Under the pieces are notes generated by a model. That model was not told the DNA's origin, made no database searches, and saw only the letters and a list, made by a program, of their open reading frames with translations. DNA of 64,000 bases from the NCBI GenBank assembly GCA_903892355.1, contig CAITIE010000106.1, positions 1-64,000 on the forward strand, written 5' to 3'. The stretch's first letter is position 1. Each line of letters opens with the position of its first letter. Positions 1,192 to 8,846 of the stretch are shown here, one piece after another. The position numbers were made by a program, and so were the translations under genes. This stretch comes from an uncultured Pirellula sp. (GTDB lineage: Bacteria > Planctomycetota > Planctomycetia > Pirellulales > Pirellulaceae).

Positions 1192-1425
1192 AAGTTCATT
1201 GGTCCGTAAAAACATCGGGATGGCCCTAACGATTGGGTTTTATACTACTTGCCGGCCGCTTAGTTGCAAATAAATTGCCGATTCCTCGTTCATTTGCTCT
1301 TCGGGACTGAAAGATCGAAGGCTGGGGAACGAATTCGGGGGATAACTAGGCTGGGTTGAGCGGGCAGGGGTGAGTTGCTAGGGGTGAGCGTCTGGGGGAT
1401 CACGGAATCCAGTACGGGGAGCGGG

Positions 1426-2568
1426 ATGGTTTTTCGAGTTTTGGCGAGAGTTCTGGCCGGTTTTAGAGGGGTTTGGAGGGTCTCGGTGCGGGCGATTTGT
1501 TTGGTCCTGCTCCTGAGCGTGGTCGCGACCGTGCCGATCCTTCAATTTGCAAGTTTAGGTTACATGCTGGAGTCGGCCAGCAGAATCGCGCGAGGGATGC
1601 CACTCCGCTCCTGTTTTCCTGGGGGGGAAACCGCTAAAAAGATGGTCCTGAGCGGTCTTTTTCTCGCCGTTTCATGGTTGCCGGTTTGGCTTGTGACCGA
1701 TTGGGGGTATAGCGCCGAACTCATGGATCCAGGATCTACGTTTGCGCTTCGATTTCGGGTAGGTGCTAGGGTGCTGGCAGTTCTATGGGTCGTTTGGTCA
1801 GGATGGGCCCTTTTCCGAGGCGGTCGCTGGTATCACTTTTTGTGGCCGGCTCCGAAGCGTTTTATGAGGACTGTCTTTCGACTCGAATCATGGCGAGAAC
1901 TCGAAGATCGGTGGTGGGATTTGGTGGTCTCGCTACGGCTTACGTATCTGATGAAGCTCGGATTCTATGCTTCGATCGGCGCGTTGCTTTGGTTGCTGAT
2001 ACCCGCTGTGCTGATCATTGTTGCCCTCAATGGCGGTGCTAACAGCCCAAGCAACGGCTCAAATCCGGAGGGGTTTCTCGGGTTGATCGGGCTCCTCGGT
2101 GCGATCAGCATGTGGTGGGTTCTTCAAAAACTGCCTTTCCTTCAAATCCATATGGTTAACGAAGGCAAGTTGCGAGCGATGTTGGATCGTGCAGCGATTC
2201 GGAATGCATTTCGGAGGGCGCCGTGGGCCTTTTGCATTGCGATGGTGGTTCTCGTCCTCCTTTCCATTCCGCTCTACCCACTGAGGATCGAGTCGATCCC
2301 GTCCCAGCTTCGATGGGGGCTCGCTCTCTTTTTCGTTCTTTTCATGTTCCCAACCAAACTTCTGGTTGGTTGGGCGCTTCGACGGAGTCTCACTAGGACC
2401 AAACCGGTTCATTGGTTTTGGCGTTGGATGGCTTGGGTCCCTATGGTCGGCTCGATCGCAGTCTACGTGGGATTTTTATACCTTGCGAAGTTTACTCTTT
2501 GGGAAGGAGCCGCAAGTATCCTGCTGCAGCATGCGTTTCTACCACCCGTCCCGTTCTATTTACGATAG
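1426..2568 (+). CDS. Polytopic membrane protein of unknown function
   Basis: About 380 residues with roughly six to eight hydrophobic segments, including ICLVLLLSVVATVPILQFAS near the start and LLWLLIPAVLIIVALNG in the middle. Long cytoplasmic-looking basic loops separate them. The LGYMLESASRIARG stretch after the first membrane segment resembles planctomycete membrane proteins of unknown function. The frame is open from a TTG at 1375, but the ATG at 1426 has a better upstream context (GGGGAGCGGG) and gives a shorter, basic N-terminus. The stop codon lies inside a 17-bp tandem duplication. I see no enzyme motif, and transport is not demonstrated. Confidence 0.8.
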   Translation: MVFRVLARVLAGFRGVWRVSVRAICLVLLLSVVATVPILQFASLGYMLESASRIARGMPLRSCFPGGETAKKMVLSGLFLAVSWLPVWLVTDWGYSAELMDPGSTFALRFRVGARVLAVLWVVWSGWALFRGGRWYHFLWPAPKRFMRTVFRLESWRELEDRWWDLVVSLRLTYLMKLGFYASIGALLWLLIPAVLIIVALNGGANSPSNGSNPEGFLGLIGLLGAISMWWVLQKLPFLQIHMVNEGKLRAMLDRAAIRNAFRRAPWAFCIAMVVLVLLSIPLYPLRIESIPSQLRWGLALFFVLFMFPTKLLVGWALRRSLTRTKPVHWFWRWMAWVPMVGSIAVYVGFLYLAKFTLWEGAASILLQHAFLPPVPFYLR

Positions 2569-2639: not shown

Positions 2640-3815
2640 TTATCGCACGAAAAGACGCTCAACGAGGTGGGTTGCAACAAGCCTGATACGGTAGAGTCGC
2701 ATCAGGGCATTTCGGATCAATTGGCGGATAGGCATCGTTGGAAGCGCGGATGCCTTTTGAATATCCTCTGGGCCATGCGGCCAGTCGCGAATGCGTTCGA
2801 CGTAGCGTTCGACCCATGATGTTTCGTTGGGAAAGAGTGTAATTCTTTCCAGCCATCGTTCTGGGATGCCTTGCACACCACGCTGAATACCACATAAGCA
2901 ACCTGCTATTGTTGCCGCATTGGACATGTTCCCACCCAATCGGAGAATCTGGGTGATGCAGCGTTCGTAGCTCTGGGGAACTCTCGCCCATGCGTAGATT
3001 GCGATCAATGCGCTATCGACCATGTTGCCATTGAGCCCGTTCGGGTATCCGAGGCTTGCGGCAGCTTTGGTGAGTGAACAACGATCTTTAAAGAGCTTCT
3101 CGAGCATCTCTAAACGTACGTTGATGCCTTCATCCTTCGTCGCCCTCAGCAGCATCGGAAAGATTTCTGGATTGGAAACCGCGTAACGCGTGCGATGCAT
3201 CTGTGCCATCTGCGCTGCGATCGCGACGAGCATTGCTGCTTGGCAGACGTTGTCATCACGACTTGAAAGTAGGGTTGAGCGTTGAACCCATCGGAGTGCG
3301 GAATCGTTGTGGCCTTGGAGGACGACGCTCAAAAGGCTAGCGCGCACCATAGGGTCGTTCCCATACGATGCGATCAAGTGATTCCTCGATTGGGTGACGG
3401 TACGGTAGATCCATGAAGCGATCGAGCGGATCGGCTGGGATAAACGATACCAATTCAATCGACGACGCAGCGCATCGGCAAAATCGTCGACACCCGCGCG
3501 CGACCGCAATACCGATTGGATCGTCATGAGCTGAGAATGCGTTCGATGGTTCGGCCAAGCCCGCGGAGGAAGTCGGAATTTTTTGGAACGTCGCAAACGT
3601 CGCAGCGCGGTTTTTCGGTCCAAGGTTCGATGGACTTGGCTGAGGGCTTCCGCAGTGGCGCCTCCCAGAAGCACTCCGGCGATGGCTTCTTCGCGGCGGG
3701 CTGTCGGAATGATGGTCGACCAAGAGATCGGAGACTCACCCGGGCTGCGACCTTGTTCGCGCACCGAAAGTGTGGCTCCTCGTGAAGTTCGTGGGTACGA
3801 TTCTGGGGGTGACAT
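2640..3815 (-). CDS. ADP-ribosylglycohydrolase-family protein lacking the metal ligands
   Basis: The fold signature is clear. Near the N-terminus there is REEAIAGVLLGGATAEALS, matching the family start G-x-LLG-x-A-x-GDALG. A helical middle has ALRRRLNWYR, and the C-terminal third has LGGNMSNAATIAGCLCG followed by a glycine loop and IPERW, matching the family LGGDTDT-x-AAIAGALxG ... IPxxW. The acidic residues that bind the two metal ions are absent: GDALG is TAEALS, the T-D-D-T site reads RTHSQ and GGDTDT reads GGNMSN. It is therefore probably a catalytically dead ARH-fold protein, or one with altered chemistry. The frame is open upstream to 3929; the ATG at 3815 is chosen because the upstream part is poorly protein-like. 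It is convergent with the membrane protein gene at 1426-2568. Confidence 0.8.
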   Translation of the reverse strand: MSPPESYPRTSRGATLSVREQGRSPGESPISWSTIIPTARREEAIAGVLLGGATAEALSQVHRTLDRKTALRRLRRSKKFRLPPRAWPNHRTHSQLMTIQSVLRSRAGVDDFADALRRRLNWYRLSQPIRSIASWIYRTVTQSRNHLIASYGNDPMVRASLLSVVLQGHNDSALRWVQRSTLLSSRDDNVCQAAMLVAIAAQMAQMHRTRYAVSNPEIFPMLLRATKDEGINVRLEMLEKLFKDRCSLTKAAASLGYPNGLNGNMVDSALIAIYAWARVPQSYERCITQILRLGGNMSNAATIAGCLCGIQRGVQGIPERWLERITLFPNETSWVERYVERIRDWPHGPEDIQKASALPTMPIRQLIRNALMRLYRIRLVATHLVERLFVR

Positions 3816-4136
3816 CGGAATCGGTGGTCGTAGGTTCAAATCGTGGGCGTTTGGGTGTGAGCTTATCCAGGGGAGAGTCGGATCGACGGCAGGGTCGGAT
3901 CGACACACCCACGTGTTTAGGAATGCCAAAGCACTTTTCAGCGAAAATCGCAGTCAAGTTTGCAGGCTGGATCCGCTAAAACTAGCCTACGCACAATCAG
4001 TCCCGATCCCACGGAAATCCGACCAACATGTTGCCGCTATGTTAGGCTTAATGCGTCACAACTGCTACAATCGGTGCAAAGGTCAGAGGTCGACTCCCTC
4101 CCGATCCATCTCCAGCAAAGAACATCTGAGGTTGCC
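3816..4136. other. Intergenic region between divergent genes
   Basis: About 320 bases separate the ARH-like gene (minus) and the dioxygenase gene (plus), so promoters for both should lie here. The only structure I see is an 11-base direct repeat gtcggatcgac at 3877-3887 and 3894-3904 (17-base period). No clear promoter boxes were identified. Confidence 0.5.
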
Positions 4137-4838
4137 ATGCGTTCTCAAAACTCACGACGTCGATTTTTGGTCCAAGCGATATCCGGTAGCGGCGTTGGGT
4201 TGTGGATGGCTCGCACGGCGTGGGGGAATTTCATTCCGCCAACAGCAGCGCAGACCAAAGGTCCTTTCTACCCGGTACCAGAGATCGAAAAGCAAAAGTA
4301 CTTCGATGCGGATCTCACGCGTTTGGATGCCAAATCTCCGGTTGCCAACGGAGAGCAAATCGCAGTGCGAGGGGTTATTCTGGATATGGATGAGAAGCCC
4401 CTCGACCAGGTGATCGTAGAGGTGTGGCAGGCGTGCGAGACAGGGCGGTACAATCATCCGCAAGACCGCAACGATCGGCCGATGGATCCTAACTTTCAGT
4501 ACTGGGCACGAATGGTCACAGGTCCCGATGGGACGTTCTCGATCCGAACCATCCTGCCTGGTAAGTACCCCGGACGAACGCCTCACTTGCATTATCGGAT
4601 CGTTGCACCGAATCGAAGTGAGCTCGTAACACAGATGTACTTCGAGGCGAACCAAGAGTGGAATCGCAAAGATGGCATCTTTATGGATCTCAAGCCTGAG
4701 CAGCGGGCGGCGGTAACGATCGGGTTGGCAAAAAAGCCGATCGCAGCGAATGATCCCAAAAGTGAACAACTTCCAACGGGAGATTTCCGGATTGTTTTGG
4801 GGCCTCGCAGCGACTCGAAATCAACCCAGCCTATGTAG
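4137..4838 (+). CDS. Exported intradiol ring-cleavage dioxygenase
   Basis: A 233-residue non-haem Fe(III) dioxygenase of the catechol 1,2-/protocatechuate 3,4-dioxygenase superfamily, which opens catechol-type rings between the two hydroxyls. The N-terminus has a Tat-type signal (SRRRFLVQ, hydrophobic run to residue 30). QTKGPFYP at 39-46 is the usual beginning of the catalytic domain. The iron ligands are visible: Tyr105 (GRYNHP), Tyr122 (FQYWAR), His150 and His152 (PHLHYR). The ATG at 4137 is chosen because it starts the Tat signal; the frame is open further upstream to 3960 without protein-like features. No second subunit gene or aromatic pathway genes lie nearby, so the substrate is unknown. 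Confidence 0.9.
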   Translation: MRSQNSRRRFLVQAISGSGVGLWMARTAWGNFIPPTAAQTKGPFYPVPEIEKQKYFDADLTRLDAKSPVANGEQIAVRGVILDMDEKPLDQVIVEVWQACETGRYNHPQDRNDRPMDPNFQYWARMVTGPDGTFSIRTILPGKYPGRTPHLHYRIVAPNRSELVTQMYFEANQEWNRKDGIFMDLKPEQRAAVTIGLAKKPIAANDPKSEQLPTGDFRIVLGPRSDSKSTQPM

Positions 4839-4856: not shown

Positions 4857-4903
4857 TGGCGGCTTTTCGATTATCCAGGGGCGACCAAAACCGCCTTTTA
4901 GCT
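4857..4903 (+). terminator. Possible terminator hairpin of the dioxygenase gene
   Basis: GGCGG at the left and CCGCC at the right can pair across an A/T-rich, partly complementary interior, and the right arm is followed by TTTTAG. The stem is imperfect, so this is weak. It lies between the dioxygenase stop and the convergent PEP-CTERM gene. Confidence 0.3.
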
Positions 4904-5641
4904 ACACTTGGTTCGGCGTTTGCGTCGAATCCAGCCCAAGCAGCCTCCGGTTGAGACCACGCTTAGAAGTGCAATAGACGATGGCTCTGGCACGCCAGCA
5001 GCAAACGTGAACACGCCAGTTCCGGATAGATTGCCAAGAGTTTTGTGATTCCCGGAAATCCCTAATTCAACTTGGTAGATTCCTTCTCGCGAAAACCCCA
5101 AAAAGAAGTGCTCGTGCCCACCTGCAGTTTGCGTGAACGCGTCAGCGACGGTTATCCCGTCGCTTGTCGCGAATCGGACGGTGGGAGTCCCAAAGGACTC
5201 GGACCAGAGCGAAAAATTTCCTCCCGTTGGAGCCGAAACCACGGAAACGAGGTTCCAGGTCAATTGCCCGTTCCAGTCGGCCGGATCCAAGTCCTCGAGT
5301 CCCCAACCTAAGAACGGCTTGTTCGGTTCAACAAAGTCCGCCAAGTACCAAATGCTGTCGGTGGGGGCACCTAAAAAATCCCAAGACGAACCGCTTGGCC
5401 TCAGGATGGGTGGGCCAGCAACAAACACACTGTGGTCGGTGGGCGCATACTCACCCGCTGGAATCGTTCCTCCGCCAGCCGCATCGACAGCGTCTTCAAA
5501 GTGAAAGTGCAGTTCGAGCTCATTGGTGTTTGTGAGCGCAACCCCAATATCACCGTGCCCGCCGATCCAAAGGTCTGCTTTTGCTGGATTAGAGATTGCA
5601 AACCCACACCAAAATAATCCTAAAACTAGGCAAAATCTCAT
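4898..5641 (-). CDS. PEP-CTERM surface protein with choice-of-anchor M-like domain
   Basis: A 247-residue exported protein. Residues 1-22 form a signal peptide ending in AKA. The body fits the choice-of-anchor M/surface-anchored repeat pattern: GHGDIGVAL, LELHFHFE, then DSIWYLADF, GGNFSLWS, VRFATSDGIT and GGHEHFFLGFSREGIYQVEL. The C-terminus is a PEP-CTERM sorting signal, VPEPSSIALLSV followed by a hydrophobic stretch and RRKRR. Such proteins are processed by an exosortase at the membrane, but no exosortase gene is in this window. It probably sits on the cell surface or in the matrix. The gene stands alone. The ligand is unknown. Confidence 0.85.
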   Translation of the reverse strand: MRFCLVLGLFWCGFAISNPAKADLWIGGHGDIGVALTNTNELELHFHFEDAVDAAGGGTIPAGEYAPTDHSVFVAGPPILRPSGSSWDFLGAPTDSIWYLADFVEPNKPFLGWGLEDLDPADWNGQLTWNLVSVVSAPTGGNFSLWSESFGTPTVRFATSDGITVADAFTQTAGGHEHFFLGFSREGIYQVELGISGNHKTLGNLSGTGVFTFAAGVPEPSSIALLSVVSTGGCLGWIRRKRRTKCS

Positions 5642-5806: not shown

Positions 5807-6934
5807 ATGAGTATGCAAAAGAATGGTACTGCCATTAGGAAGGCGTTTACGTTGGTTGAGTTGCTCGTAGTCATCGCAATCATCGGTTTACTGGTTGGGT
5901 TGCTACTGCCTGCTGTGCAGGCAGCACGTGAAGCAGCAAGGCGGATGCAGTGTTCGAGTAATATTCGGCAACTGGCATTGGCGATTCATAACTATGAATC
6001 TGCATTTAAAACGATGCCTCCAACGATTACAGGCTCGGGAGTACCTGGAGATCCTCGAGGTAGCGGTCTGTACAGTTGGTTAGCGATGATTTTGCCCCAT
6101 GTGGAGCAGGGGCCTCTTTTCAGTCGATTGGACTTTTCTGTACCGATGACCAGCGCGATTGTTGGCAGCACTCCCAATTATCTGAAGCTAGAGATTCGTT
6201 CGGACCATCGAAACGCAACGGTGGCTGGAACCCGAGTTTCGACGTTCTTGTGCCCATCAGATCCGTGGTTGCAGACGACTTACGCTGGCACCGCTTCGCC
6301 GGCTCCGGGAAGTTATGCGGGAAACCTTGGTTGGGTACGGCAAACAACTGGAACACAGGGGCTGGATCCGCAATTGCTCCAAACCAATGGGGCGATGCCA
6401 ATTGCGAATCCAGCGGATACAAACCGATCGTGGTATAAGTCCACAATGTCCTTTCGGGACTTTACCGATGGAGCATCTAATACGGCGATGCTCTCGGAGA
6501 GGGTGATCAACAGTCTTGTTCCCGTCCGAGGAGGTTTTGGCTTCTATATGCCTAAAGGGCCCAGCAGTGTGATGTCCTACTGCGGCGGTTCGGGTGCAAC
6601 GCGTTCGTTGCCGCAGTGGGTTGCTTATTGTGATGGAGTTACTACTCCAGATCCTGTTTACTCAGCTCCACACGGAAAAGCTTGGATTTCTGGATTAACC
6701 CTTGCAGGTAATCTGTACATGCATGTTCTGATGCCCAATAAAAGGAATTGCCACGTATACGGTGGTGAGGCGAACGGTAACAACATGGTAACGGCCAGTA
6801 GCATGCACGGGAGTGGCGTGCATGTAGTTGCGGCAGATGCACACGTTGACTATGTAAGTCTTTCGGTAGATTCAAAAGTTTGGTGGGAGATGGGCTCGAG
6901 AAACGGTGGGGAATCAACTTACCGACCCGAATGA
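5807..6934 (+). CDS. DUF1559 protein with type IV pilin-like N-terminus
   Basis: A 375-residue member of the family expanded in planctomycetes. The N-terminus has the prepilin methylation motif [20 protein letters not shown], followed by [20 protein letters not shown] and LALAIHNYESA, the standard DUF1559 opening. The globular part has LCPSDP and DGASNTAMLSERV, and the C-terminal part has MHGSGVHVVAADAHVDYVS, which fits the family H-x9-DG region. It is thought to be exported and to form pseudopilin-like or surface structures; the function is not established. ATG 5807 follows GAAAGGTGGGG. A second family member lies at 13736. No pilus assembly genes are adjacent. Confidence 0.92.
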   Translation: MSMQKNGTAIRKAFTLVELLVVIAIIGLLVGLLLPAVQAAREAARRMQCSSNIRQLALAIHNYESAFKTMPPTITGSGVPGDPRGSGLYSWLAMILPHVEQGPLFSRLDFSVPMTSAIVGSTPNYLKLEIRSDHRNATVAGTRVSTFLCPSDPWLQTTYAGTASPAPGSYAGNLGWVRQTTGTQGLDPQLLQTNGAMPIANPADTNRSWYKSTMSFRDFTDGASNTAMLSERVINSLVPVRGGFGFYMPKGPSSVMSYCGGSGATRSLPQWVAYCDGVTTPDPVYSAPHGKAWISGLTLAGNLYMHVLMPNKRNCHVYGGEANGNNMVTASSMHGSGVHVVAADAHVDYVSLSVDSKVWWEMGSRNGGESTYRPE

Positions 6935-6991
6935 AGGCGGTTTGGTTTACGCTGCTATCCTGATGTGCATATCGAGGCTGTTCAACAACGA

Positions 6992-7678
6992 TTAGCCATT
7001 TTCAAGTACCCATTGCGCAGCGAAACAGTTCAGTTCCGCCGCATTGGCCAGATTCAGCTTGATCTTCAGCTTCTCGCGATACGTATCGATGGTGTGAACG
7101 CTGAGAAACAGCTTTTTGGCAATGGCGCCCGTCGTGTTGCCTTGCCCGATCAATGTAAGCACCTCCAATTCCCGATCGGATAGGTTTTCTACGGGAGACT
7201 TGCCCGGTTCGACCATTCCCCCGATATGGCTTTTGAGGATCCGGTCGGTCATCTCTGGGCTTAAATAAGTCTTTCCCTCGAGCACCGTATGAATGGCGGT
7301 GATCAATGTCTCGCGTGCTGTCTGTTTATTGAGATACCCCATCGCCCCAGCTTGCAAGGATCTCTCGGCATATACGCCTTCATCGTACATGGAGATGACA
7401 AGCATTTTTATTGTTGAGTTGCGTTCGCGAAGTCGTTTGATGAGATCGATCCCATGCCCGGTTTTTAGCGATATGTCGACAATCACCAAGTCAGGGCAGA
7501 GTTCACTGATGAGTTGCAGCGCTGGTTCGACATCGTCGGCCTCTCCGCACACAGCGAGTCCAGGTTCGTGGGAGATTTGCGTGGCCATTCCGTCGCGCAA
7601 CATGGGATGGTCGTCGACGATAAAGATCCTGGCGGTATGCGACTTGTTATTTTTGTTGTTGGGCATGCCATTCTTCAT
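6992..7678 (-). CDS. NarL/FixJ-family response regulator
   Basis: A 228-residue two-component response regulator. The receiver domain has the acidic pair in IVDDHP, the phospho-acceptor Asp68 in LVIVDIS and the conserved Lys region NKQTARE. The C-terminal LuxR-type helix-turn-helix is DRELEVLTLIGQG ... FLSVHTIDTYREKLK. It should bind DNA when phosphorylated by the kinase encoded just upstream. ATG 7678 has a strong Shine-Dalgarno AGGAGG eight bases upstream, which decides the start over a GTG at 7723. The start lies within the kinase gene, whose stop ends at 7647, so the two are coupled. The target genes are unknown. Confidence 0.95.
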   Translation of the reverse strand: MKNGMPNNKNNKSHTARIFIVDDHPMLRDGMATQISHEPGLAVCGEADDVEPALQLISELCPDLVIVDISLKTGHGIDLIKRLRERNSTIKMLVISMYDEGVYAERSLQAGAMGYLNKQTARETLITAIHTVLEGKTYLSPEMTDRILKSHIGGMVEPGKSPVENLSDRELEVLTLIGQGNTTGAIAKKLFLSVHTIDTYREKLKIKLNLANAAELNCFAAQWVLENG

Positions 7679-8789
7679 TGTGAATCCCTCCTCGAAAGAC
7701 TTTGCAAGCCAACAGAGTTCCACCGTTTTCGACAGGTGCGATGCTCAGATTACCACCAATTAGTCCAGCGCGATACTGCATCGTCTTGAGTCCCATGCCG
7801 GTCTTTGATGTTGGGGGATCGAAACCGCAACCATCATCGGCAACCTTGAGTACGAGATGGCCATTTTCAACTCCGAGTTCGATGAGTATATGCTCAGGCT
7901 TTGCGTGTTTTAAAGCATTGGTAACGGCTTCTTGTGCGATTCGATAAAGATGCGTTGCGGTGCTGCTGTCGGAGATAGTGATTGGTTCTTCGCATTTGAA
8001 GGCGCAATGGACCGATTTCAAATTGTCTGTCCTCGCAGCCAACTCACGTAAAGAATCCATGAAGCCGTTGGAGTCGAGTCGGGTAGAAACCAAATCCTTC
8101 GAGATGTCGCGGATTTCCTGGTGGGCACGCGTCAATCCGGCGAGTATCTTGCGCGAAAGATCCCTGAAGGGTTCGACAATACCTGCAGGAATCGACTGTG
8201 ACTCACGATTGAGGTTATTGAGAAGTGTCTGCGCCAGCATCCCAATACCTGCTAGTTCCTGTTGAACACTGTCATGCAGATCTTGTCCGATACGGAGTTG
8301 CTCATTATCGGCGATGGACAAAATATCTCGCTGGAGGTTCTTGCGCTCGCTGATATCTCGGATAATCCCCGTGAACAGTCCCAACTGGCCCACTTCACTA
8401 ACTGCCAGATCGACGGGAAAGATCGTACCGTCCTTACGTTTTCCCATCGCCTCGCGACCGCTCCCGATGATCTTCGCTTCCCCGGTGGCAAGGTATCGCT
8501 TCAAATATTGTCCATGTTCATGGCTATACGGGGTCGGCATGAGAATGCTTACATTTTGGCCGACCAATTCGTTGGGGCCATATCCAAAAATACGCTCCGT
8601 CGCAGGATTTGCTGAGACCATGATCCCACGTTGATCAATGGTGATGATCGCATCGGAAGCAGTGCTAAGAATCGCTCGCAATTGCGCTTCCCGTGCCCTC
8701 AATGCATCTTCTGCGCATTGGGTCTCGTTGGTTTTTGGAGCATCGTCGCTGCGATCTGACGGGGAGAGTAAGGAATCATCTGGGCGCAT
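7647..8789 (-). CDS. PAS-domain sensor histidine kinase (HisKA_3 type)
   Basis: About 380 residues with no membrane segment, so probably cytosolic. A FixL-like PAS domain covers roughly residues 32-147 (AILSTASDAIITID, ANPATERIFGY, KRKDGTIFPVDLAV, FTGIIRDISERK). The dimerisation/phosphoacceptor motif is GQDLHDSVQQELAGIG with His172. The HATPase_c domain has the N-box AQEAVTNALKHA, the G1 box DDGCGFDPP and the G2 box GMGLKTM. This is the NarX/DegS class that pairs with LuxR-type regulators, as in the overlapping downstream gene. Haem binding is not assured: the PAS domain resembles FixL in its C-terminal part only. A TTG at 8813 is an alternative start. Confidence 0.94.
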   Translation of the reverse strand: MRPDDSLLSPSDRSDDAPKTNETQCAEDALRAREAQLRAILSTASDAIITIDQRGIMVSANPATERIFGYGPNELVGQNVSILMPTPYSHEHGQYLKRYLATGEAKIIGSGREAMGKRKDGTIFPVDLAVSEVGQLGLFTGIIRDISERKNLQRDILSIADNEQLRIGQDLHDSVQQELAGIGMLAQTLLNNLNRESQSIPAGIVEPFRDLSRKILAGLTRAHQEIRDISKDLVSTRLDSNGFMDSLRELAARTDNLKSVHCAFKCEEPITISDSSTATHLYRIAQEAVTNALKHAKPEHILIELGVENGHLVLKVADDGCGFDPPTSKTGMGLKTMQYRAGLIGGNLSIAPVENGGTLLACKVFRGGIHNEEWHAQQQK

Positions 8790-8846
8790 GGGGGGCTCTG
8801 GATACTCTACCAAAGTCTGGAGTCAGGGTGGTTTCCATGCGGTTGG

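What the first reader, a model, noticed from the sequence alone, without database searches (positions are those of the whole stretch)
2640..3815. ADP-ribosylglycohydrolase homologue that has lost all recognisable metal ligands
The fold signature is intact (GVLLGGATAEALS; LGGNMSNAATIAGCLCG; IPERW), but each site where the family has metal-binding acids or threonines is changed: GDALG to TAEALS, T-D-D-T to RTHSQ, GGDTDT to GGNMSN. The surrounding helices remain well kept, which argues for selection and not decay. It may bind ADP-ribose or a modified protein without cleaving it, or act as a regulator.
Basis: partly seen in the sequence, partly recalled or inferred. Interest (0 to 1): 0.72.

Follow-up and report, generated by a model that had tools for sequence, protein, structure and literature searches.

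The report
Conserved dead ADP-ribose hydrolase relative
A planctomycete bacterium and its close relatives carry a protein that looks like an enzyme for removing ADP-ribose tags but has lost nearly all of the known active-site residues, yet it is kept under strong selection and carries its own conserved motif, which suggests it now works by binding a partner and not by catalysis.

Summary
At 2640-3815 (minus strand) lies an intact 391-codon gene of the ADP-ribosylglycohydrolase (ARH) family (PF03747, 77.8 bits). One of six canonical metal-site residues remains; the Glu-flap glutamate and the adenine-site tyrosine are gone too. It is not a recent mutant: 26 of 27 genus genomes have the orthologue and these keep only 0-3 of the 6 residues. 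dN/dS is 0.08-0.19 (13 of 15 pairs), close to ligand-intact paralogues (0.13-0.16, 3 pairs). The gene belongs to a subfamily marked by R-x3-WPHG-x2-D-[ILV] near the C-terminus: 43 of 43 rows, WPHG in 0 of 23 paralogue rows. Some members in other genera keep all six ligands; on the tree the ligands were lost about five times (4-7 over 1000 bootstrap trees). In this genus Arg91 replaces a metal Asp and a new Asp154 appears, each in 25 of 26 rows; the one exception has Asn at both. Best reading: a maintained pseudoenzyme acting through its WPHG region. It stands head-to-head with an intradiol dioxygenase in 22 of 27 genomes, but each gene also occurs without the other. ADP-ribose binding is not supported by the sequence. 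No function or partner was shown.

The parts
2640..3815 (-). the gene: ARH-family pseudoenzyme, 391 codons (ATG at 3815, stop at 2640-2642)
   Evidence: translation; PF03747 77.8 bits; orthologue in 26 of 27 genus genomes
3642..3656 (-). residues 54-58, TAEAL: site of the family's GDALG; acid kept as E56
   Evidence: Glu/Asp in 26 of 26 genus rows
3627..3629 (-). residue R63, aligned with the Glu-flap position
   Evidence: Glu in 23 of 23 paralogue rows, 0 of 26 genus rows (alignment gappy here)
3537..3551 (-). residues 89-93, NHRTH: site of the family's S-D-D-T-E metal motif; R91 in 25 of 26 genus rows
3342..3362 (-). residues 152-158, GNDPMVR: site of the family's GNGPAMR loop; new Asp D154 in 25 of 26 genus rows
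3024..3026 (-). residue N264, aligned with the paralogues' SGY Tyr and a DraG Tyr that I take to be the adenine-stacking Tyr212
2919..2936 (-). residues 294-299, GGNMSN: site of the family's GGDTDT metal motif
2757..2795 (-). residues 341-353, RIRDWPHGPEDIQ: subfamily motif; residues 349-357 have pLDDT under 50
   Evidence: R341, WPHG and D351 in 43 of 43 rows; pLDDT; one occurrence in own genome
2646..2732 (-). residues 362-390: predicted C-terminal helix; cut short in 8 genus rows that form one tree branch
   Evidence: H362-390; alignment; tree
3816..4136 (.). 321-base gap between the divergent genes; no 8-mer shared by more than 7 of 22 gap sequences (20 genomes)
4137..4838 (+). intradiol dioxygenase (PF00775, 89.4 bits), head-to-head neighbour in 22 of 27 genus genomes
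1375..2568 (+). DUF4013 protein on the other side; found next to the gene in 4 of 15 genomes whose downstream flank is long enough to tell

Best explanation
It is a maintained pseudoenzyme. An ARH-fold protein has lost its two-metal catalytic centre, its Glu flap and its adenine contact, and is kept by selection for something other than ADP-ribose hydrolysis. Shown here: the loss is shared by all 26 genus orthologues, the gene is under purifying selection, the old pocket region carries a new conserved Arg and Asp (R91, D154), and a C-terminal motif R-x3-WPHG-x2-D-[ILV] is invariant across the subfamily, ligand-intact members included. Inferred: R91 and D154 pair up and fill the empty metal cavity; the WPHG motif region docks a partner; the protein acts by binding (scaffold or regulator), and catalysis became dispensable because that binding role was what mattered. 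The partner is unknown; the neighbouring dioxygenase is a weak candidate.
For: Six-site score 0-3 in 26 of 26 genus rows against 6 in 23 of 23 paralogue rows. Glu at the flap and Tyr/Phe/Trp at 264 in 0 of 26. NG86 dN/dS 0.082-0.192 in 13 of 15 genus pairs (2 saturated); YN00 0.031-0.234 in 14 of 15 (the two lowest have dS near 3; one error); three paralogue pairs 0.128-0.161 by NG86. WPHG, R341, D351 and R41 in 43 of 43 subfamily rows; WPHG in 0 of 23 paralogue rows. The motif as DNA occurs once in the window's genome, at this gene; in the family 43 of 241 genomes match, 40 at this gene and 3 elsewhere, against 2 for the reversed control. About five separate ligand losses: 5 in 814, 6 in 131, 7 in 38, 4 in 17 of 1000 bootstrap trees. 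The only genus row without R91 is also the only one without D154: L025, Asn at both. The stretch just after WPHG, including E-D-I, has pLDDT under 50 in both models in spite of its conservation (349-357, 334-340). PDB chains of two complexes are named as ARH relatives: mt-SAF23 (6sga) and ARHL (8xks).
Against: No partner or activity was shown. The low pLDDT may only reflect a shallow alignment (22 rows), and WPHG itself is not in the under-50 stretch. The R91-D154 contact rests on one joint substitution; no coordinates were given to measure it. The two g50 rows keep 6 of 6 ligands but lack the Glu flap and the aromatic, and two ligand-losing rows keep the Glu, so these losses are not one package. 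The 23 paralogue rows were chosen by hand from score-ranked hits, not at random. dN/dS pairs share branches. The subfamily is a clade only if the root lies on the paralogue branch; the g42 row groups with the paralogues (98/93). R41, R278 and R341 each also occur in 1-2 of 23 paralogue rows.
Confidence: 0.6

Rival explanations
1. ADP-ribose reader: the pocket still binds ADP-ribose or an ADP-ribosylated protein but cannot cleave it.
For: The fold is kept (Foldseek probability 1.00 to ARH3 and DraG); P155, R158 and G295 of the pocket loops are invariant in 26 of 26 genus rows.
Against: Metal ligands, Glu flap and adenine-site aromatic are absent from the genus rows; positions 296, 298 and 299 are among the more variable quarter of the core (entropy ranks 0.76-0.79); both metals are needed to position substrate (PMC7050489, section read).
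Confidence: 0.1
2. New enzyme: R341, W345, H347, E/D350 and D351, perhaps with R91 and D154, form a different active site with a different substrate.
For: WPHG and D351 are invariant in 43 of 43 rows, R41 and R341 too, R278 in 41 of 43.
Against: The motif is already present in ligand-intact members, so it did not arise as a replacement; the residues after WPHG are not confidently packed in either model.
Confidence: 0.13
3. Dioxygenase partner: the protein regulates, assembles or helps the head-to-head intradiol dioxygenase.
For: Head-to-head in 22 of 27 genus genomes, which is all that have both orthologues; 241-523 bases between the matched stretches (with coordinates). The other flank (DUF4013) is kept in only 4 of 15 genomes with enough sequence.
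Against: G016, G020, G021 and G023 keep this gene without the dioxygenase orthologue (three have only distant dioxygenases of 33-36% identity, G023 none; they form one tree branch of weak support, 92/24); G007 keeps the dioxygenase without this gene. In the 17 g20, g42 and g50 loci examined (0.8 to 6.8 kb upstream held in 16 of them) there was no dioxygenase match.
Confidence: 0.1
4. Slow decay: a dispensable gene drifting towards loss.
For: Repeated loss of ligands in the subfamily and absence of the gene from G007 with both neighbours kept.
Against: dN/dS 0.08-0.19, no internal stops in the 24 genus orthologues, presence in 26 of 27 genomes, invariant motif.
Confidence: 0.03

Closest known systems
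ARH2 / ADPRHL1 (vertebrate ARH-family member without shown activity)
   Same: ARH-family protein whose residues differ at the SDDT and DSDS / TDDT and DTDT sites and for which no activity was found (PMC9738213, passages seen)
   Different: Vertebrate muscle protein, 47% identical to ARH1 in that paper's table; here a bacterial subfamily with about five separate losses and a WPHG motif. I did not align ARH2 itself
DraG / bacterial ADP-ribosylglycohydrolase (PF03747)
   Same: Fold, order of motifs, GG and IPxxW landmarks
   Different: Metal ligands, Glu flap and adenine-site Tyr changed; NCBIfam DraG model 26.3 bits against a cut-off of 337.05
Ligand-intact ARH paralogue of the same bacterial family (e.g. 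L118, in a genome of the same genus)
   Same: Same Pfam family, in some of the same genomes; shares the C-terminal R-N helix start
   Different: All six ligands in 23 of 23 rows, no WPHG, separate branch 100/100
mt-SAF23 (PDB 6sga) and ARHL (PDB 8xks)
   Same: Chains named as ADP-ribosylglycohydrolase relatives inside large complexes
   Different: Eukaryotic (mt-SAF23 as a mitoribosome assembly factor is recalled); I saw only chain names and titles and did not check their ligands

Membership tests
PF03747 ADP-ribosylglycohydrolase (sequence family) | profile score above the curated cut-off over the full model | tested here: met
   77.8 bits, cut-off 26.2, positions 1-287 of 287
PF03747 ADP-ribosylglycohydrolase (sequence family) | all-helical ARH fold | tested here: met
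   AlphaFold pLDDT 83.0, pTM 0.85; Foldseek probability 1.00 in all 50 rows listed, TM by query length 0.48-0.60, rmsd 5.7-8.1
ARH hydrolase (enzyme) | two-metal centre: DDT and D-x-D-[ST] | tested here: not met
   1 of 6 canonical residues
ARH hydrolase (enzyme) | Glu-flap glutamate | tested here: not met
   R63; Glu in 0 of 26 genus rows, 6 have Asp, 8 gapped
ARH hydrolase (enzyme) | adenine-stacking aromatic (Tyr212 of DraG) | tested here: not met
   N264; Tyr/Phe/Trp in 0 of 26 genus rows. That the aligned DraG Tyr is Tyr212 is inferred from a numbering offset of five
ARH hydrolase (enzyme) | alternative acids in the pocket that could hold metal | not testable with these tools
   conserved acids at 56 and 154, but no model coordinates were given
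ARH hydrolase (enzyme) | hydrolysis of an ADP-ribosyl bond | not testable with these tools
   needs purified protein
DraG equivalog (TIGR02662) | score above 337.05 bits | tested here: not met
   26.3 bits
Tri1 ADP-ribosylarginine hydrolase (NF041672) | score above 490 bits | tested here: not met
   13.8 bits
ARH-fold pseudoenzyme (works like ARH2) | catalytic residues lost while the gene stays under purifying selection | tested here: met
ARH-fold pseudoenzyme (works like ARH2) | acts by protein binding | not testable with these tools
   no interaction data

The most novel reading that the evidence does not exclude
The WPHG subfamily is an ARH-fold module whose kept job is not ADP-ribose hydrolysis: a second site built from R41, R278, R341 and the invariant WPHG-x2-D motif does its own work (a new chemistry or an obligate partner contact), which is why catalysis could be thrown away about five times in one bacterial family while that site stayed untouched.
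Probability: 0.3. Interest if true: 0.72.

Novelty: new variant of a known kind. Interest (0 to 1): 0.5.

Why it matters
A pseudoenzyme is usually met as a single dead copy (general knowledge). Here one bacterial gene family offers living intermediates, from all six metal-site residues to none, with the same family fold and the same motif throughout. That makes a test of when and why catalysis becomes dispensable, and it points at one motif as the thing being kept. If that motif binds a partner, the family would be a bacterial counterpart to ARH2, whose function the review seen calls an area for future study.

Tried and rejected
Recent mutation or sequencing error: rejected, since 26 of 26 genus orthologues share the loss. 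Decoy for an active paralogue in the same cell: rejected for the window's genome, which has no second PF03747 match; some other genus genomes do have one. Decay: rejected on dN/dS. Alternative acidic ligands: acids conserved in at least 80% of genus rows are at 46, 56, 154, 340, 344, 350 and 351 (the window protein has Ala at 46); whether any lie in the pocket could not be measured, as the structure tool gave no coordinates. Shared operator in the divergent gap: no 8-mer in more than 7 of 22 gap sequences from 20 genomes (exact words only). Link between ligand loss and Glu-flap loss: Glu is missing in 35 of 37 ligand-losing rows and 2 of 29 intact rows, but only 4 independent pairs exist, too few for a test. 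Members outside the family: in the order search (296 genomes) I read the 15 loci L142-L156; none has WPHG, and the best hit outside the family, L142, has DDT and GGDTDT; other matches were not read. In the named genome collection 29 stretches matched the peptide pattern DWPHG[VP]ED and 21 encode a relative; the other 8 were not examined. ADP-ribosylation machinery in the own genome: one macrodomain match, no Tpt1/KptA match; other transferases were not searched. Literature (open-licence papers only; listings and starts of abstracts seen): 'ADP-ribosylglycohydrolase' with 'pseudoenzyme' 0 papers, with Planctomycetes 5, with crystallin 3, with mitoribosome and assembly 0, with 'catalytically inactive' 3; Pirellula with ADP-ribosyl 2. 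None of those listed appeared from title and abstract to treat a bacterial ARH pseudoenzyme. (chloroplast motor; pseudoenzymes in general) gave background only.

Full report
What is there. The finding's span holds one gene on the minus strand, 391 codons plus stop, open from ATG at 3815 to 2640. Pfam places it in ADP_ribosyl_GH, PF03747, over the whole model (77.8 bits, cut-off 26.2). It is the only PF03747 match in the held genome of 6.18 Mb, 96.9% complete. AlphaFold gives pLDDT 83.0 and pTM 0.85. Foldseek puts it with human and coelacanth ARH3, DraG and MJ1187 at probability 1.00, at modest TM-scores (0.48-0.60 by query length) and rmsd 5.7-8.1 in the 50 rows listed. The host family is unnamed in the tools; record titles of the loci read Pirellula, Planctomycetaceae or Planctomycetota, so I call it Pirellulaceae by inference.

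The active site. I aligned the gene with relatives and read six positions that carry metal ligands in this family: DDT (90-92) and D-x-D-[ST] (296, 298, 299). All 23 paralogue rows have 6 of 6 (one with Glu at 296, counted as kept). The 26 genus rows have 0-3 of 6, the window protein 1 of 6. Two more features are absent from the genus rows: Glu at the flap position 63 (0 of 26; 6 Asp, 8 gaps) and Tyr, Phe or Trp at 264 (0 of 26; 8 His). Position 264 aligns with the paralogues' SGY and with a DraG Tyr at chain index 217, which I take to be the adenine-stacking Tyr212 of the review PMC7050489 (section on ARH structure read). The acid of GDALG is not lost: position 56 is Glu or Asp in 26 of 26.

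Age and selection. The orthologue occurs in 26 of 27 genomes of the genus. In the genome without it, G007, the genes that flank it elsewhere stand next to each other, and tblastn found no convincing remnant (best E 0.012). Of 15 genus pairs, 13 gave NG86 dN/dS of 0.082-0.192 and 2 were saturated; YN00 gave 0.031-0.234 in 14, the two lowest with dS near 3, and one error. Three pairs of ligand-intact paralogues gave 0.128-0.161 by NG86. The pairs share branches and are not independent.

The subfamily and repeated loss. R-x3-WPHG-x2-D-[ILV] near the C-terminus is present in 43 of 43 rows: 26 of the window's genus (g1), 14 of a second genus (g20), 2 of g50 and 1 of g42; WPHG is in 0 of 23 paralogue rows. 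As a DNA pattern it occurs in 43 of 241 family genomes, 40 at this gene and 3 elsewhere, against 2 for the reversed control; the window's genome has it once. Three subfamily genomes (G024, G047, G052) escape the pattern through variants at positions 350 or 352. On a tree built without the motif columns, g1 is one group (99/95), g20 one (100/98) and the paralogues one (100/100); the g42 row sits next to the paralogues (98/93). The root was not inferred; I rooted on the paralogues. Four g20 rows and both g50 rows keep 6 of 6; ten g20 rows (1-4 of 6) and the g42 row (4 of 6) do not. Counting loss as irreversible gives five losses: g1, G053, G050 with G059, a seven-row g20 group of weak support (82/61), and g42. 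Over 1000 bootstrap trees the count was 5 in 814, 6 in 131, 7 in 38 and 4 in 17. The 23 paralogue rows were picked by hand from score-ranked hits.

What replaced the metal site. In g1, R91 takes the place of the second metal Asp in 25 of 26 rows, and D154 appears in the GNG loop in 25 of 26. The single exception is the same row, L025, with Asn at each. I infer a pair that fills the empty cavity; no coordinates were available to measure it. The former ligand positions 296, 298 and 299 are among the more variable quarter of the core (entropy ranks 0.76-0.79). In both models the stretch with pLDDT under 50 near the C-terminus begins just after WPHG and covers its E-D-I: 349-357 in the window protein and 334-340 in the orthologue of L045. 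Conserved but not confidently packed on the monomer is what an interface could look like; a shallow alignment (22 rows) could give the same.

Neighbours. An intradiol dioxygenase (PF00775, 89.4 bits; a Tat-like N-terminus by eye) stands head-to-head at 4137-4838. Orthologues of 56-100% identity occur in 23 of 27 genus genomes, and in all 22 that also have this gene the two are divergent neighbours, 241-523 bases between matched stretches (with coordinates). The other flank, a DUF4013 protein, is found in 4 of 15 genomes with at least 1.3 kb held downstream. Against a tight link: G016, G020, G021 and G023 keep this gene without a close dioxygenase, and G007 the reverse. In most g20 loci and in g42 the gene follows up to three co-directional proteins of one sequence cluster, one of which has a DUF11-like stretch just below Pfam's cut-off; I found no neighbour shared by g1 and g20 next to the gene.

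Reading. The most likely account is a pseudoenzyme that works by binding, with the WPHG motif region as the contact. The nearest known case is ARH2, an ARH-family protein without shown activity (PMC9738213, passages). PDB chain names also show ARH relatives inside two large complexes, so the fold can serve in assemblies. My searches found no paper on a bacterial ARH pseudoenzyme in the open-licence library (listings and abstract starts only).

Noticed in passing
L157 (G007) 6230-8500: In the one genus genome without the gene, the dioxygenase and the DUF4013 gene stand next to each other; no convincing remnant by tblastn (best E 0.012).
   Followed up: yes
L158 and L159 (G023, G021): The dioxygenase is missing from between this gene and the clusters CL6, CL4 and CL5 (polysaccharide-type proteins by eye) that lie beyond it in related genomes; G021 has a different 285-aa frame there.
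   Followed up: partly
L087-L102, upstream of the gene: In most g20 loci and in g42 up to three co-directional proteins of one sequence cluster precede the gene; of the three from L094 one had a DUF11-like match below the cut-off and two had no Pfam match.
   Followed up: partly
G000:C139:53259-53573 (-): A macrodomain match (33.9 bits, cut-off 22), another ADP-ribose-related protein in the same genome.
   Followed up: no
window 6992-8813 (-): Frames that look like a PAS-type histidine kinase followed by a LuxR-type response regulator (by eye).
   Followed up: no
window 5807-6934 (+) and 4898-5641 (-): A DUF1559-type pilin-like protein and a PEP-CTERM-type protein (by eye, names recalled).
   Followed up: no
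G097:C35:195067, G181:C1:5074975, G227:C70:76620: The WPHG DNA pattern also occurs in three genomes away from any matched ARH gene; not examined.
   Followed up: no
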